From Arthonia radiata (lineage: Eukaryota > Ascomycota > Arthoniomycetes > Arthoniales > Arthoniaceae): 64,000 nucleotides of DNA. Both the position numbers and the translations under genes were made by a program. Position 1 is the stretch's first letter. Each line of letters starts with the position of its first letter. Below the pieces are notes generated by a model. The model worked only from the letters and a program-made list of their open reading frames with translations. It was not told the DNA's origin and searched no databases. This document shows, piece by piece, positions 52,766 through 63,152 of the stretch. The stretch is taken from the NCBI GenBank assembly GCA_002989075.1, contig PSQN01000017.1, forward strand, positions 1,426,001 to 1,490,000, in the 5' to 3' direction.

Positions 52766-54170
52766 TCAATAGCGATACCCATTCGCAAAGCCCGACAACG
52801 GCGTATCTCTCATCTCGCGAAACGTCATCCCCTGCCTCATCAGCGCCCCTCGTGCCACACAGTCCGCCTGCACCAACGGACTTGTCGTGGGCGGGGCCAA
52901 TCCCGCTGCAGTCAATTCATTCTTCAGCTGCTGCATCCAAAACGTCGACTCAGCCAGATCTCCAACGACCATCGTGAACTTAGACCGCTTCGTGACGTAC
53001 CACCACTGAGGGCACCGAGCTGCTTCTTTGATCCCTTCTGCGACTTTCGTAGCACTCGTGTAAAAGGCAGCACCAACAGCCGCTGCGCCAATCTGCCCGA
53101 GTTCGAAAGCAACTTTGCCGTTACTTCCGTTTAGCTCGAAGGAGTAGACGTAGTTTGCGCCGGTGAGACGGTGCTTGATTTGGTTGCAGTGCGTGCGGAT
53201 TTCTCTCAGCAACTGCGCTTTCGGTAGGCCGGCTTGGTGAGCTAAGGCTTCGGCGTTCAGCGCACGTACAGGTTCCGTCCATCCAAGGAAGTGTTGTTCC
53301 AAGTAGTTGTCAACTGTGGAGGAGCCGTTGGGAAAGGTTGCTGAACCGCGACAGAGGATCGTGAGTCGCTTTGGAGCTGTGGGGACCCAGGCGATGTGGT
53401 AGAGGGCGTAGGTGACGGTGTCGCCTTTGTCAATGATGATGGAGAATTCGTCGCCTTCAGAGATGGTCGTGTCGAATGATGTGATGGCGTGTGCAGCTAT
53501 GCATTCGATTTCCTTCTCGATGTGGAGCGCTACGAAATCTAGCTTCGAGACTGCGGCACGTACGGGTGACAGATTGAGCCCACTGCCTGCTTGTGGCATG
53601 CACAGGGATAGTCGCTCCAAGTGGATGAGTGATATGTCGATAGACTCCATGCTGGCGATGCATTTGATCGCATATTGTTTCAACTGTGACAGATAGCTCT
53701 CTAATATGCTTGCAATTGCCGTGTGGCTGGTCTCAATGTGCAGAGCTTGGATCTCTTGTGTTACCTGCTGTGCTGGGTCGTTCGGTGTGGGCATGTTTCC
53801 GCTGCCTGCTGGGTTGAGAAGCAAGAGGGTTTTAAGATTTGGCACGTATCCATCGCTATGGGCATCACCTTCACGAGCTTTTGCCTCCCCAGTTGTGCCC
53901 CACAGGACGGTGCCATCGTTGTTGACGAAGAGTGCTGGTGATGTTGTGGAGGTTGAGCCAGGGAAGAGGAGAGCTTTGACTTTGCTTGGCTGTACTCAGA
54001 TGAGCTGAGTGTTACAAAGACCGGCATCTCATGGAAAAGCTTACCTTGATCAGGCCACTCGTAGTGATCTCCCCGTAAGATGCTCTAAGATGCCTATCTC
54101 CAGCATCGAGAGCGAGCCCGAAGTTTCGACGACCAGTCTGAATCTTTTGAGTAGGGCGTGCTAAATGCAT
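52766..54170 (-). CDS. Degenerate Hsp70-like protein (probable pseudo-ATPase)
   Basis: Exons 54170-54045 and 53989-52766 give 449 residues. The layout follows the actin/Hsp70 fold of fungal Hsp70-like proteins: a phosphate-1 strand (FGLALDAG) near residue 17, FVNNDGTVLWGTTGEAKARE near 65, a C-terminal adenosine-side region and ADCVARGALM near the end, which corresponds to the AVARGA motif of this group. The key nucleotide motifs are altered: DAGDRH replaces DxGTT and IIDKGDTVTYALY replaces the DxGGGT loop. Residues about 90-200 are poorly conserved. Ability to hydrolyse ATP is therefore doubtful. The first exon is found only by splicing and gives SGLIKPSKVKALLFPG. It sits beside two better preserved relatives. 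Confidence 0.7.
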
Positions 54171-54906
54171 ATTGATGATGAACACGGCGAAGAGCGAAAA
54201 AGAAAGTCCCCATGTGTGAACAAATCACAGGCTCTTTTGTTTACGTGTTTCGCAGGCAACAAGATCCGAGGCTTGGCAAACATAGGAGATGGAGGATCAC
54301 TTGAGATGACAGCAAGGCCTTTTCTTGGCATACAAGGTGATGGCCACAATGCATTAACCGTTGCTACGCCTGGTTGAGTATCCACGCGCTCGTACTGTGC
54401 ACCCAATGCTCCTCTACAATCATGGGCTCCTCCCGAGTGGGCTTTGCGCTGCTGGCATGCCTCCTACCGTGATAGGGGAAGCGCCAGCTGCATGAAACAA
54501 GGGTGATTCTAATCTATGAGTGAGTACCCCTCGATTAGCATGAAGTCTGAAAATGACATTGAAGCATTGATAATCAGGATCTGACGCGTTCCTTTTTATG
54601 TAGTTTGTGCGACAAGGTCGCTGTGACGAGGACCAAGAATGGCATCAGAGCAGATTTGGACCAGCCCGTGCCTCTTCAAAATATTGAGCTTGATCTAGCA
54701 TTTTGGTAGACAAGTAGCAACGAGGTGTCACATCAGCATCGGGAAAGTCTGGACGGCCAAGATCGCTGGCGGGGCATGTAGCGCATTTATAGCACTCATC
54801 AACGTAGAGCGTGCCGGCTCAAGCGAACAACCAATTTCAATCCTGCTCCGCTCTCAGAATTTCCATCTGCACTTCATCTTTCTTCCCGTCCACCCTATCA
54901 CGTCCA
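54171..54906. other. Spacer between the first two Hsp70-like genes
   Basis: 736 bases upstream of the degenerate Hsp70-like gene and downstream of the middle one. No supported gene; frames of 70-81 codons lack features. Confidence 0.45.
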
Positions 54907-56580
54907 TCAAGGGGTTTCATCGACCGTGTTCTTCTGCTTTTTGGTGCGTATAGCAAGGCCCACGCTGGCCGAAGATTCGAATGCGCGAGCCGGGCTTGCT
55001 GCGGACTCGACCTCGACATGTTTGCGCTTTGATGGCTTGAACCAATCGACTGGGTGGTAGGTCGAACGACCTAAAATCAAGATGTCAGCACAGCTCCTTA
55101 TGAAGTTTGTTTCGGTTTCAAACAAAGTTTTTTGAGACAACGCCGGCGCGCTAGCTGCCGAACGGTGGGTTTGAGACAACAGAAAGGAATGTGCGGATGC
55201 TCTGAGACTTACCCACATTGCCCCGTTACGCACGTATTTTCTGGTCTTGCTGAGTCGTCATCGGCCGGAAATCGATCTGGTCGAGCAAGACCCCTCCCTT
55301 CGAAACGACCATAGTATGATCACCTGTTAAGCCCGTCGTCGTCGGAAGGCCCAGGCACTGCAGAACAAAGCCCAAATGCTTACACCAGTACTCGCATTCT
55401 GAGAATCCACCAAACACAATCGATTTGGTGACCTTTTCCGGGTGTGATATTCTGTCGTCCTCGAACGCTCGCTTGATTGATGCGAACACGAGGCGCACGC
55501 TGTCGTCGAACAGACCGACCAGTGTCTCTCTCTTGATCGTCAACTCGACTCTGCCTTTTGGTCCCCTTAAGGTGAATGAGGCGAACTCGTCCGCCGTGCC
55601 GAACTTGGCTTTCATGTGTCCAACCTCAATCCGGATGTGGCCGTGGACATGGGCTCTGCTGAGTCCGGTCTTTGCTCGATATCGATCAATCAGCTTCTCG
55701 TCTCGATCGATGAACTGTTCGGAGAGTGTACAGTCTATATTCAGCGATCCACCAGCAACGCAGCCGGATGCGCCTTGAAAGAGGACCTGTTTACCGTCGG
55801 CTAGCACTGAGCCTATGCGGTAGAAGCGCCAGTCTGTGGTCCCTGCGCCTCCGTCAATAAGCAAAACCATATCCCCCTCTTTGGCGTGAAGCTGATAGTG
55901 ACGGAAGAGAAACGCGGCTGCGCAATCAACCTCCGGAGCCAATTGCGCGTGTTCAAATCCAAGAGCATCAAGTCCATCTCGCATCGGCTGCGTATGTACA
56001 ACCAGATCAGACTGAGGCGTACAGATGATGAGCTCTTTGATTTGGATTGTGTCCGTAGGCCTCCCTTCTACCTCTGCAATGCTCGTCTTAGCGTGATCAA
56101 TGTACTCGCCAAGGGCGAATTCAACCACCTCGTTTAATGTAGGTGGTTCTTCACCGGCTGTGGGCAGCCGACTGATCTGTACTCTAGTTGCATCTGCCAG
56201 TCGAAGCATCGAACGTTCCCCTTCAGAGAGATCTGACCACTCGGCAGGAACTGGAGCATTGAAAAGGGCGACTTTGATGTTGGCGACCCGACGGTCATCA
56301 TCCACGCGTCCTTCTTTGAACGCTTTGACAGCCTCATGACCCCATACTAGTACATCAGGTTCAGGAAAGGCGATGCATGAAGGTGCTGTGGTCGCTTGTA
56401 ATCCATCGTAAAGGATTCGGCCAACTAGCTCGTGCTGGTGATAACATCAGCGTGAGCAATTTTTTCAAACTCTTTCAGAGCCTCATGACTCACTCTAAGA
56501 CCTTCTCGGAGAGGAAGCGGTGCATATGCTCCTTTCATACGAGCGGTCCCGGCATCGATTGCGACGCGATATTCCGGCAT
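54907..56580 (-). CDS. Hsp70-like ATPase with introner-type introns
   Basis: Exons 56580-56494, 56434-55234 and 55070-54907 give 483 residues. The start MPEYRVAIDAGTARMKG has the phosphate-1 loop (DAGT); LLIDGGAGTTDWRFY is the phosphate-2 loop and IVFGGFSECEY the adenosine loop, so nucleotide binding looks possible. EVDCAAAFLF near residue 190 is typical of the fungal Hsp70-like group. The last exon encodes a Lys/Arg-rich tail (FKPSKRKHVEVES) that may be a nuclear signal. A simpler model stops at 55226 with 431 residues; the spliced model is preferred because the intron it needs (163 bases) matches in length and sequence the intron upstream of the ATG. The substrate-binding domain of true Hsp70 is absent. 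Function unknown. Confidence 0.78.
55071..55233 (-). repeat. Introner-like intron, copy 1
   Basis: A 163-base intron with donor GTGCGT and acceptor TTTTAG. From GAGCATCCGCACATT to CTGTGCTGACAT it runs in step with copy 2 at 56602-56763, sharing GCATCCNCACATT, GGCAGCTAGC, TTTGAAAC and GCTGTGCTGAC. The centre can fold (CAGCTAGCGCGCCGGCG). Both copies lie in one gene in the same orientation. Confidence 0.75.
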
Positions 56581-56601
56581 AGTCGATCTTGAACAACGTA
56601 C

Positions 56602-56763
56602 CTGGAAACAACACGTCAGCACAGCCCCTTCCGAAAATCATTAATGTTTCAAATCGAAGCAATGTAAGGCAACGCCAGCGTGCTAGCTGCCTGGCGATGG
56701 GTTCGAAGCGATAGCAGGAAATGTGTGGATGCTTTAAGGCGTGCATTTCTGTACAGCACTCAC
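56602..56763 (-). repeat. Introner-like intron, copy 2 (5' UTR)
   Basis: A 162-base element with donor GTGAGT and acceptor TTCCAG, ending 21 bases before the ATG of the middle Hsp70-like gene, hence a 5' UTR intron. It holds the perfect pair CGCCAG/CTGGCG around AGCTAGCACG. Homologous to copy 1 over most of its length. Confidence 0.75.
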
Positions 56764-57207
56764 ACCAATTTCGACCGCAGTCGAGTCGATTAATCTAGAG
56801 CGATGTCGGTAAAAGGGCCGGTAAAAGGATCATAAAGAGACAAAATCGAATGCGTGTATGCTCTTTCACTTGCCGAGGCACCTGCTGGGTATGTTCACTA
56901 GCTTAGATGTGGTGGATGGAGATAGACTGGAGAAGCAAAGAAAGCAGAAGATGTAAGAGAAACCAGCCTTTCACCTTTCAGTGATATTGTGTTACTATAT
57001 GTCTCGGCGCTATTTGGTGACGAACGTGCACGTGCCACATCGTTGACCTGCCTTCTTATTTCAACTTGGTTTCTCAAAGGACGACTGTCAGCTCGACACT
57101 ATCTGAAAACCCATCATCTGTGCATCAACCTGAGGCAGGCAACATAACCATACCAGACAGCCAATATCCAGGCCAGGTGATTCAAAGCTTTCTGAAGTTC
57201 GACGGTA
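56764..57207. promoter_or_regulatory. Divergent promoter between Hsp70-like gene and the 620-residue gene
   Basis: 444 bases. A doubled string CCTTTTACCG is read on the minus strand at about 56808-56832, upstream of the Hsp70-like leader exon. No TATA box is assigned. Confidence 0.45.
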
Positions 57208-59123
57208 TTGGAAGCTCAAGGCTTCTTTGACGGTTCATTCTCAGCTATGATGGCAGGGACCGGAAGCAAACACCCGCTCGTTGAGCCAAATGACGCTGAT
57301 GGGCAGCTTCAAGCACAAGGCCTGGCCACAAACAACAATCGTAGATGCTCAGAGCGAATCCGACAGTTGCAGGCCCAAAAACCGAAGTCAGCCATTGCGA
57401 CCGCGAGACAGTCAAGGAATTTCAAGCGTACTAAAATGAACCAGGCGGAAAAATCCGCACGCAAAGAGGAAATCATCAATGCATTGCCTACGCTGCATAT
57501 AGATCGAGTAGAAGGGGGCTGGAAGGACCCACAGCTCGCTGAACGAGATGGATTGCTGATGGCGCCGCCCCCGGCACCGAATATTTTGCCCGCGTCGGCA
57601 AAAGCACCACTGACTGCCACCTATACTGGGCATCATGCGCCGCTCTCACAAGCTGGCGCATCTCCTGCTGAAACTTTTATCCCGAATATGGGGTCGCAGA
57701 CATACAACCTCACGGAAAAGGCTAGCAAAAAGCGTTCACGATTTCATAAACCTGCCACGAACATCAATCCACTGCATACGGGTCTGCCGCCCTCCAACGA
57801 TGGCCGGCATTCGTCCCAGGAGCCCGCTAACAAACGGCGAAAGATGTCAAACGATGGCAAACATGTTCAACCTGTTGAAGATCGCGCTGCGAGCTATGAA
57901 TCATCTGAAAGCTGGCCCTCGGATAACACTTGCTCCAAACTTCGTCCCTCAGTCAACGATCCCTGCAGCGAGCAATCCTATGAAGACCAAGGCATCCAAG
58001 ACCAGCCCACCGGAGAGCAGCCCACCGGAGATCAGCCCACCGGAGATCAGCCCACCGGAGACCAGCTTACCAGAGACCAGCCCACTGCAAAGGCACTCAC
58101 TAGCAAATGCCGATCAGAAAACGCTCCTCCGATCAAGCCAATAATCACACAAACAATCACCCACCACGCAGAGAATCGCATAGCCTCCAACTTGGTCATT
58201 GAACCTTATGAGCCTCAACAAGAGATAAAGGAGTTGTGGGTAGAGTTGCGAAAAACGTCAGACAGCTTTCATAAGTCTCTGAATCTAGTCTGTCCCGCAC
58301 CGCTCACGACGGCCAAAGACCCTGGCTCAGCGCTAACTAGACTATACGATAAAATTTTGCAGTCAAAGGAAGGTGACCATGACTGGGCTCAAAATGCAGC
58401 CTATGTGAGGGGCAATGAGGATCCCTGCAACGCACAATTCTTTGAGGCTCTCATTGGAGCTTGGCTCTCGCAAGAAATCTTGGAGAATCGATCACCAGTG
58501 AGCACACCTGCAGAGATCATCGAGAAGCTTGGCGAGGAAGATGCGCAGACCTTGTGGGGTGGTTTGATGGAGCATCTCAGTGAGTGCCTCCATACTAGCA
58601 TATCTTTTCGTCAACTGATCTCTTTGGCACAGACTGTACCTTACCGCAGCTCTTCCAATATCAAACACTGGTTCAACTGAATCGGAAAGAACTTGATGCG
58701 AAACTACAGCGCCAAAGCAAGCGTCTTACGAAAGATTTCATCGGAGCGCTTGAGCAACACGCTACTACCATGGTCAGTAATCATGGCGCGGATAGACGGT
58801 CAACTAAAGGAACAATGTCTAAGGCGTTGCGGCATCTAAGTGTGAACTGCGAGAAGCTAGCGCTCATGGCATTGAAACTGCGTGTTCGACTTGATTGCGT
58901 ACTGGGACAGTGGAACTTCCGTTGGTTCCAGCGAGGCGAAAAGAAGCAAGCGAGCATAATGCTACACTGTCACAGTCCTTTCGACACGATTGATCATGAT
59001 GAAGACGCAACAGTCGCGTTTCCTATATTTCCATGTTTTGAGAAGCTATCGGACGACACCGATGCTGTGAAGAGCTCGGAGATCATTCAGAGAGGGTTTG
59101 TTCACGCAGAAGTCGAGCTATGA
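57208..59123 (+). CDS. Protein of unknown function with QPTGD repeats
   Basis: Exons 57208-58579 and 58633-59123 give 620 residues. The 53-base intron (GTGAGT to CACAG) joins EHLN to CTLPQLFQYQ; without it the frame stops at 58680. The first 300 residues are polar and disordered, with basic clusters (ASKKRSRFHKP, PANKRRKMS) that suggest nuclear entry. Five copies of a 15-base unit encode QPTGE/QPTGD/QLTRD at residues about 266-290. The C-terminal 290 residues look folded and mostly helical (EIKELWVELRKTSDSFHKSL, FFEALIGAWLSQEIL, ALRHLSVNCEKLALMALKL, DCVLGQWNFRWFQ). I do not recognise a family. It lies between Hsp70-like genes, but any link is speculative. Confidence 0.75.
58003..58077. repeat. 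In-frame 15-base tandem repeat, 5 copies
   Basis: Five units of CAGCCCACCGGAGAN within the 620-residue gene, the last with two substitutions. Because 15 is a multiple of three, copy-number change keeps the frame. Confidence 0.85.
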
Positions 59124-61377: not shown

Positions 61378-63152
61378 CTACAGCTGGAGGCCTATCCCGA
61401 AAAGGTCTGTCGACGCCGACGTCACAGTCGGCAATGTAGGCAAAGCGCTTAGCATTGAATCCATGTTGAACGATTCAGCGTTGCAGACCAGCTGTTCCGG
61501 TGCAGTCCACATGCTTGAACCATGACCCTCTTGCTCTCTCCACTTCGCTTCCTCTTCCTTCTTCTCGAGCACGCCGCCGCACAAAGGCGCTCCACGAGCG
61601 ACAGCATTCCATCTAATCTTCAGTCAGCTTGTGAAGGCAAGAGAAGAAACTTGGATACGTACGCCCTCAGGTCTTGGTCCAGAATCTCGAACTTGTCCGG
61701 GTCGATGCCAAATAGCTTATCCATGGATGCTGAGAGCTTTGCCTTCAAAAGCTTCCTCAAGCAAGGTGAATCCGAAAATCCACCTGTCATCGAGATGTAG
61801 TCAGGGGGTGGCGGCAAGCCCCCTGCATACCAACGTGTCTGAAATTGTTCAGTGATGGCTTGTTCCATGTGTCCTGCGACCGTTTCGAAGACGCGATAAA
61901 TCTCATCGGCATCCAACGTCGCAGAGAATGTTTCTTCTGAGCCTACACGATGATTAGCTTAGTAAGTTCGGACTGTGGCATATGTCGATTCGCGCCGCTA
62001 ACTGCTGGCTCGATCTCCAGACTTACCCTTTATGTCAACGCGCAAAGACTGACGATCCGTGCCAAACTGCATCTTTAGCTTGTCGACTGCAGTGGCAAGC
62101 TTTCTATCAAATTCCATCTCAGACAACCCGATGCGGCGCAACACCCCGGCTGGTCGTCGAACTAGGCCTGTAAGGCTCCTCGTAACGTCTGCAGACCCGA
62201 TTGGCTTGCTCGCCGGTGTTGAATACGGCTGAATGCCGAGAGACCGACGATTCCGGCTGTTCTGAACGATCTTGAATGCCATCATATCAAACGTACCACC
62301 ACCACAATCCAATATCAGGATACGCTTGCCAATCTGCCACTTGGGGTTGCGGAGAGAGATACAAAGTGCGGCCGCGCATTCTGCTTCTCTAGCGACTCGG
62401 ACATTCTGGATGCCAAATTGGCGAGCGGCGTTCACGAGCGGTACGGCCTCATCTTCTGTGAACGCCTGTGGCAAACAGACCTGCAGCTCTTGGAACCCTA
62501 TATTGCCAATAGGTAGATCTTCGGTTTCGGCGATGTCTCGTAGAGCAACGGTGAGATTCATGGACAACATCGCACCTACTGTGAAATTCTGTCGCAAGAT
62601 CGTCAGCTTGAGCACTTGGTCTCCTGCATGCGAAAGGCAAAGCTCAAAAGAACTCACAAACATGTTGAAAGGCCCCCAACGGAGTACCTTGCGTATGTTG
62701 TCAAGTTGAATGATGATGCGTCGGGCCCAACAAGTGAAGCGAGAAAGTGTTGGGTCTTTGTCTTTCTCATGTCCCCACATGTCAGGCGCGTCGTCGTCTG
62801 TGCCATCGTCCGCTTTGATGTTCCAATCTGGTCGGAGGGCCAGCTTAATGCTATCAACGATTTGCTCGGGATGAAGTCTGCCCGCCTCAAAGGCATGTTC
62901 CACGAAGTCACCAGCTGCGATGTTTCCTCCGGCATCGTAGGCAACTTTTGACGATGTCGACGGCCTCCCGTTGAACTTGACAATATGGAGATCAGTGACC
63001 TAGACGGTGAGTTAGTTGCGTCTTGAACGACGTTCACGTTCCCTGCTTACCTCTAAAGGCGTTGATTCGTCAAGCGGATACCAAAGAATCTTGGTCTGTG
63101 TAGTCCCCATGTCAACTACGCAGCCGAACGGGATCCTCTTGCGGTTGTCCAT
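61378..63152 (-). CDS. Hsp70-like ATPase
   Basis: Exons 63152-63051, 62999-62027, 61942-61663 and 61612-61378 give 529 residues. Nucleotide motifs are intact: VVDMGTTQTKILW near residue 13, ILILDCGGGTFDMM near 230 and ISMTGGFSDSPCL near 425, followed by WNAVARGAPL, the characteristic C-terminal motif of fungal Hsp70-like proteins. No peptide-binding domain follows, only a Lys/Glu-rich segment. Introns are 51, 84 and 50 bases. Such proteins are often expanded in filamentous fungi and their clients are mostly unknown. The start is the first ATG before the phosphate-1 strand. It is divergent from the gene at the right edge. Confidence 0.85.

What the first reader, a model, noticed from the sequence alone, without database searches (positions are those of the whole stretch)
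55071..56763. Two near-identical long introns in one gene: an introner-like element pair
The 163-base intron at 55071-55233 and the 162-base 5' UTR intron at 56602-56763 share sequence over most of their length, including GCATCCNCACATT, GGCAGCTAGC and GCTGTGCTGAC, and both end exactly at splice sites. Ordinary introns in this window share nothing beyond splice signals. Introner-like elements that spread as new introns are described in Dothideomycetes, with similar length and a stable predicted fold. A pair inside one Hsp70-like gene suggests recent gain or local copying.
Basis: partly seen in the sequence, partly recalled or inferred. Interest (0 to 1): 0.8.

Follow-up and report, generated by a model that had tools for sequence, protein, structure and literature searches.

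The report
Stacking, fusing introners in a fungus
Two look-alike introns in one fungal gene belong to a genome-wide family of spreading introns, which in this fungus often land exactly on the edge of an earlier one and have in some cases fused into longer elements, giving a handle on how new introns arise.

Summary
The two introns are real relatives, but not near-identical: 70% over 142 columns. Both belong to a dispersed introner family with at least 125 sites on 16 of 16 contigs. Removing copies rejoins conserved coding sequence in unrelated genes.

Copy 1 is a 142-nt "A-type" introner, 55071-55212. Copy 2 is a 272-nt chimera, 56602-56873: its 5' half is a second introner type ("D") lacking branch site and acceptor, its 3' half an A-type lacking its GT. 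Nine chimeras are held; one rejoins a UBE2C-like gene when removed whole.

Local copying is refuted: copy 1 is 91% identical to a copy on another contig.

Introners also stack. Sixteen of 24 same-strand neighbour pairs abut within 2 nt, 11 of 16 as AG|GT. Partners are no more alike than random copies: independent insertions. No A-in-A nesting was seen.

Best reading: introners spread through excised intron RNA, insertion biased to splice-junction-like sites including their own borders; a fused stack became a new mobile unit. Splicing is inferred; no RNA data were available.

The parts
55071..55212 (-). Copy 1: A-type introner, 142 nt, GTAAGT...TTTTAG; in the 3' part of the Hsp70-like gene (coding intron if the upstream donor at 55233 is used, 3' UTR intron if the element's own GTAAGT is used)
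   Evidence: family profile hits; 91% identical to the L002 copy on another contig
55213..55233 (-).
   Evidence: read from the sequence; family boundary
56602..56873 (-). Copy 2: D-A chimeric introner, 272 nt, GCAAGT...TTCCAG, in the 5' UTR
   Evidence: A part E 1.8e-37, D part E 1.7e-34
56746..56873 (-).
   Evidence: profile hit 56873-56746; alignment of other chimeras with solo D element L016:583-738; complete solo D also in L097
56602..56745 (-). A-derived half of copy 2: lacks the GT donor, keeps branch-site motif CTGTGCTGAC and 3' AG
56435..56493 (-). Ordinary short intron (59 nt, GTGAGT...CACCAG) of the same gene, not hit by the family profile
   Evidence: read from sequence; exon edges; no profile hit
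54910..56580 (-). Hsp70-like host gene, ATG at 56580-56578: exon 1 about 56494-56580, exon 2 about 55229-56434, exon 3 about 54910-55070 if coding
   Evidence: exon matches; for identity; exon 3 had no match in the other rows

Best explanation
The two introns belong to a dispersed introner (introner-like element) family. Shown by sequence: A-type (about 142 nt) and D-type (about 155 nt) elements begin at a GTAAGT-like donor, end at a branch-site motif plus AG, show no 3-nt flanking duplication beyond chance, and lie in many places; in the genes tested by homology, removing them rejoins the reading frame. Shown: copies often abut with no exon between, mostly as AG|GT, and abutting partners are not local duplicates. 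Shown: some elements, window copy 2 among them, are D-A chimeras that lack the internal acceptor and donor. Inferred: all are removed by the spliceosome. Inferred: the mobile unit is the excised intron RNA, inserted (for example by reverse splicing and copying into DNA) at splice-junction-like G|G sites, including the edges of introners already there. Inferred: a stack D|A lost its internal splice sites by deletion, became one intron, and was then copied as a unit.
For: Dispersion: at least 125 distinct sites on 16 of 16 contigs. The core 26-mer (up to 3 mismatches) has 69 matches against 0 in the reversed control, and the 3' 25-mer 59 against 0. Introns: of 10 joined proteins sent to Pfam (of 19 printed), 6 have a family domain crossing the junction (L040, whose stretch did not pass the threshold on its own; L017, L052, L029, L016; L005 by only 6 residues), 2 have a family that stops short, and 2 have none. 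One that stops short, L002 with a 427-nt three-copy stack, crosses its junction in an alignment to a glutathione transferase (E 9.2e-68, starting 7 residues before the junction). Removing the 273-nt chimera in L035 gives an ungapped UBE2C alignment across the junction (E 5.2e-23). Stacking: 16 of 24 same-strand neighbour gaps are -2 to +1 nt, the other 8 are 34 to 2731 nt; 11 of the 16 junctions read AG|GT, 5 are decayed. No A-in-A nested pattern around 79 full-length hits. Independence: mean identity 0.643 for 20 within-stack pairs against 0.646 for 3061 between-stack pairs; the nearest relative was a stack partner for 0 of 29 members. Chimera: 13 of 14 non-self matches to the 5' half start within 3 nt of its GT; solo D elements exist; the profile of the 5' half hits two D elements along their length. 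A 3-nt flanking direct repeat in only 1 of 31 stacks.
Against: There is no RNA evidence. The general reading-frame test is only modest: 33 of 53 stacks allow at least 30 codons on both sides, against 44.6% of 1060 random GT-AG deletions; 10 of 63 stacks had no GT and AG near their model edges and were dropped from it. The chimeras' A halves are not one clade in the tree (4 changes), though one clade is not rejected (AU p 0.353), so a single fusion is not shown; no unfused D|A stack was read. Folding is not better than shuffles, and the near-terminal inverted repeat shows no covariation (472 of 500 shuffles pair at least as well) and is not significant (16 of 200 and 29 of 200 shuffles reach it). 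No empty sites in relatives could be examined. The held sample was fetched by similarity, not at random.
Confidence: 0.72

Rival explanations
1. Local duplication: one intron of the gene was copied to the second place, and stacks are tandem duplications.
For: Two copies in one gene; head-to-tail stacks. C10:1219840-1220169 shows three pattern matches at an even 152-nt spacing, which could not be read.
Against: Copies 1 and 2 are 70% identical while copy 1 is 91% identical to a copy on another contig. Within-stack identity equals between-stack identity, and 0 of 29 members have a stack partner as nearest relative.
Confidence: 0.03
2. DNA transposon (MITE-like) introner: insertion of DNA carrying splice sites, as in algal introners.
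For: Near-terminal inverted repeat in the A consensus, 10.3 of 13 pairs kept on average and 79.4% of cells paired at the named register against 36-51% when slid by 1-3 columns.
Against: Only 1 of 31 stacks has a 3-nt flanking repeat (other lengths were not tested); the element ends GTAAGT and TTCTAG are not inverted repeats of each other; boundaries equal splice sites even in chimeras; pair covariation absent.
Confidence: 0.12
3. Random insertion of intron RNA or DNA at breaks, followed by selection; stacking is only what survives.
For: This kind of model is proposed for Xylariales stwintrons (PMC12403724, discussion section read). Insertion beside an intron does little harm to the protein.
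Against: Insertions inside introners should be about as tolerable and more frequent, but no A-in-A nested pattern was seen around 79 full-length hits against 16 abutting junctions. Against the 5 interior GG sites of the consensus and 2 borders, 16 of 16 at borders has probability 2e-9 (assumes equal use of GG sites).
Confidence: 0.15
4. The long element is ancestral and the A- and D-types are cropped derivatives of it.
For: Hypoxylaceae stwintrons give rise to cropped canonical introns (PMC8469720, passages). Chimeras lie near the midpoint of the unrooted A tree.
Against: The internal A half keeps a relic of a donor region (AAGYCTTAGAGC) that makes sense if A was once an intron end; solo D elements have their own complete branch site and acceptor.
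Confidence: 0.12

Closest known systems
Introner-like elements (ILEs) of Dothideomycetes (Fulvia fulva, Dothistroma septosporum, Zymoseptoria tritici)
   Same: Sequence-similar spliceosomal introns in unrelated genes, several families per genome (PMC4457414, introduction and one results section read); seamless integration (PMC8469720 passages) without target-site duplications or terminal inverted repeats (PMC9860276 passages)
   Different: Here copies abut at zero distance; the four two-ILE genes in PMC4457414 have ILEs 145-626 bp apart. D-A chimeras are present. Fold stability is not above shuffles. No copy pair above 91% identity was seen in the held sample. The host's class was not established.
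[D1,2] sister stwintrons and type-2 cropped sister introns of Hypoxylaceae/Xylariaceae
   Same: Compound introns that propagate as a unit; cropped forms fuse 5' sequence of one intron to 3' sequence of another by internal deletion (PMC8469720 passages; PMC12403724 abstract and discussion)
   Different: A stwintron is one intron nested in another's split donor; here complete introns stand end to end (AG|GT), and the fused pair are two different introner types.
DNA-transposon introners (Micromonas, Aureococcus and others)
   Same: Dispersed elements acting as introns
   Different: Many of those have target-site duplications and/or terminal inverted repeats; ascomycete families are described as outliers (PMC9860276, passages), as here.

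Membership tests
Introner (sequence-similar introns across unrelated genes) | Many similar copies dispersed in the genome | tested here: met
   at least 125 sites on 16 of 16 contigs; 136 branch-to-acceptor motif matches against 12 in the reversed control
Introner (sequence-similar introns across unrelated genes) | Similarity spans the intron from 5' to 3' splice site in unrelated genes | tested here: met
   44 of 63 stacks start with GT and 44 of 63 end with AG exactly at the model ends; homology crosses junctions in GST, phosphorylase, transporter, dehydrogenase, GH28, peptidase and UBE2C genes
Introner (sequence-similar introns across unrelated genes) | Removed from transcripts | not testable with these tools
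   no RNA reads; only coding continuity
Dothideomycete ILE | Seamless insertion without target-site duplication | tested here: met
   3-nt flanking repeat in 1 of 31; alignment across the junction is ungapped in L035 and has one gap 5 residues before it in L002
Dothideomycete ILE | Stable predicted secondary structure | tested here: not met
   z -1.09 to +1.82 for 8 stretches, +0.33, -0.45 for the consensus and -0.39, -0.42 for two 150-nt D stretches
Dothideomycete ILE | Near-identical copies showing current activity | tested here: inconclusive
   maximum nearest-neighbour identity 0.91 among 79 held copies; only a sample was held, and D. septosporum ILEs are also divergent (PMC4457414)
Dothideomycete ILE | Host is a dothideomycete | not tested
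[D1,2] stwintron | Internal intron splits the external donor between nucleotides 1 and 2 | tested here: not met
   11 of 16 junctions read AG|GT with a whole donor after the acceptor, 5 are decayed
MITE-like DNA-transposon introner | Target-site duplication and terminal inverted repeats | tested here: not met
   for 3-nt duplications; the inverted repeat is only near-terminal and not significant

The most novel reading that the evidence does not exclude
Introner insertion is directed to splice junctions, so new introners land on the borders of existing ones. Stacks form this way, lose internal splice sites, and the fused product is excised and copied as a new mobile unit: introners evolve by modular fusion, and the unit of mobility is whatever the spliceosome releases.
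Probability: 0.45. Interest if true: 0.8.

Novelty: new variant of a known kind. Interest (0 to 1): 0.6.

Why it matters
How spliceosomal introns are gained is an open question, and fungal introners lack the DNA-transposon marks found in algae. Exact stacking of unrelated copies without nested insertions says where the machinery acts, and chimeras that keep only outer splice sites say what is moved. Both favour a splicing-linked route and can be checked in one genome with RNA reads and a few close relatives.

Tried and rejected
Local duplication of the two introns: rejected by identity. Polarity of stacking (new copies always upstream): upstream copy scores higher in 9 of 16 pairs, p 0.80, rejected. 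RNA fold as a hallmark: not above shuffles; the RNAalifold consensus has 7 pairs and none with both sides changed; the near-terminal stem has no covariation. Rfam: no match up to E 1 in 54000-58000. Single origin of chimeras: neither shown nor rejected. Literature: six searches did not turn up zero-distance introner stacks or two-family chimeras in the listings, sections and passages I saw. The 2012 Current Biology paper and PMC3609843 were not held, so I do not claim these features are absent from print.

Rows dropped: HMM hits under 40 bits were left out of the 79 copies (threshold in the scripts), although several weak hits abut full copies downstream (L005, L018, L032, L048). One of 79 was left out of the tree (cut-off 50 bits). 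Ten of 63 stacks lacked a GT or AG near the model ends and were left out of the frame test. Of the 99 loci, L001-L096 were merged to 68 stretches; L097-L099 were read apart. The site count used coordinates pasted (47 of 50 rows; 40 of 44); a site is a group within 100 bp; matches of the D type are included. Counts by genome search are lower bounds, as the tool states: only 40 candidates were scored. The nesting test sought A inside A only, and its 79 hits were counted over the merged loci plus the window, so the window's own copies can be counted twice there. The within/between comparison uses the held sample, which was fetched by similarity to the two window copies and a few motifs, not at random.

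Full report
What was checked. The window's minus strand carries two related introns in one Hsp70-like gene. They share 70% identity over 142 aligned columns. That is far above chance for unrelated introns (profile E 1e-44 and 1.8e-37 in the window) but not near-identity. The profile finds no third full copy in the window.

Genome-wide family. DNA searches of the window's own genome with each copy gave 50 and 44 matches, with only 40 candidates scored each. Short motifs confirm a family: 136 against 12 in the reversed control, 69 against 0, 59 against 0. Merging coordinates printed (7 weak rows left out) gives at least 125 distinct sites on 16 of 16 contigs.

Boundaries. The A-type element is about 142 nt, GTAAGT to TAG. 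Copy 1 is therefore 55071-55212. Exon 3 had no match in the other rows, so this stays open. Copy 2 extends to 56873 and is 272 nt, with a GC donor.

Copy 2 is a chimera. Nine held loci share a longer form (L001/L031, L011/L046, L032, L034, L035, L036, L050, L053, L058). Its 5' part matches a second introner type, D, which exists alone with its own branch site and acceptor (L016:583-738; L097). A profile of the 5' part hits two D elements over positions 4-131 and 1-130 (E 8.2e-11 and 1.7e-6 in the wider set). The chimera lacks D's branch site and acceptor and A's GT: what a deletion across the junction of a D|A stack would leave. No unfused D|A stack was read; A|D stacks were (L018, L044). In one search, 13 of 14 non-self matches to the 5' half begin within 3 nt of its GT, so the 5' edge is sharp; these 14 include both chimeras and solo D elements. 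In L035, removing 273 nt rejoins a UBE2C-like protein with an ungapped alignment. Of the nine chimeras, one search found an AG near the model end for eight (in L034 and L036 the 3' end is degenerate); open frames of at least 70 codons on both sides are seen in three (L035, L050, L011).

Introns, not just repeats. Nineteen joined proteins were printed. Ten went to Pfam: six have a domain crossing the junction (L005 by only 6 residues; the L040 stretch passed only for the whole protein), two a domain that stops short, two none. One of those that stop short, the three-copy stack in L002 (427 nt), crosses in a glutathione transferase alignment that starts 7 residues before the junction. The four-copy stack in L040 and the two-copy stack in L029 are among the six. 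The general open-frame test is positive but modest, 33 of 53 against 44.6% of 1060 controls.

Stacking. In 68 merged stretches (217,625 bp), 79 copies of at least 40 bits fall into 63 stacks, with 29 copies in 13 stacks of two to four. Of 24 same-strand neighbour pairs, 16 have gaps of -2 to +1 nt; the others are 34, 261, 286, 312, 925, 1389, 1453 and 2731 nt. Eleven of the 16 junctions read AG|GT; five are decayed. The partners are not duplicates: mean identity 0.643 within and 0.646 between, random sets reach the within mean in 59% of draws, and the nearest relative is a partner for 0 of 29. No A-in-A nested insertion pattern was found. There is no order of age along stacks (9 of 16, p 0.80). 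Further weak, older relatives abut the 3' side of several copies.

Insertion sites. In 44 stacks with GT at the model start the base before the element is G in 36; in 44 with AG at the model end the base after is G in 28; other positions are less marked; a 3-nt direct repeat flanks 1 of 31. This resembles the AG/GY preference that PMC8469720 attributes to the 2012 ILE paper (passage seen), but A at -2 is not marked here (14 of 44).

Structure. No sequence tested folds significantly better than shuffles. A near-terminal inverted repeat is visible in the A consensus and mostly kept but shows no covariation and is not significant as found. It recalls the NTIRE-10 elements of Xylariales stwintrons (PMC12403724, abstract and discussion), as resemblance only.

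Mechanism. Seamless ends, lack of duplications, exact stacking, and a chimera whose edges are the outer splice sites all fit copying from excised intron RNA with integration at splice-junction-like sites. This is inference; reverse splicing itself was not tested.

Novelty. Introners and compound propagating introns are known. Zero-distance stacks of independent copies and a two-family chimera propagating as one intron were not found in what I could read (searches). The key 2012 paper was not held.

Noticed in passing
G000 C10:1219840-1220169: Three matches to the pattern CTAG plus introner head (3 or 2 mismatches, letters not shown) at an even 152-nt spacing: possibly a truly local tandem amplification, unlike the stacks that were read.
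   Followed up: no
L023 1454-1496 (L019 1315-1357) and L098 around 217: Short inverted introner-head fragments lie between stacked copies (reverse-strand hits; L098 read from the sequence), which may be traces of rearrangement.
   Followed up: partly
L005, L048, L049, L075 downstream edges; C8:218767, C13:1438802, C5:49991: A further head type (GTAAGTTYAACAGCGTCCAC and close forms) occurs both directly after other copies and apparently alone.
   Followed up: partly
window 52808-53980 and 61986-62549 (minus): Further Hsp70-like paralogues on the same strand; the second has an in-frame TAG in its matched stretch. They suggest a local gene cluster.
   Followed up: partly
window about 58000-58070 (plus): Short repeat of a CAGCCCACCGGAGAT-like unit inside an open frame.
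   Followed up: no
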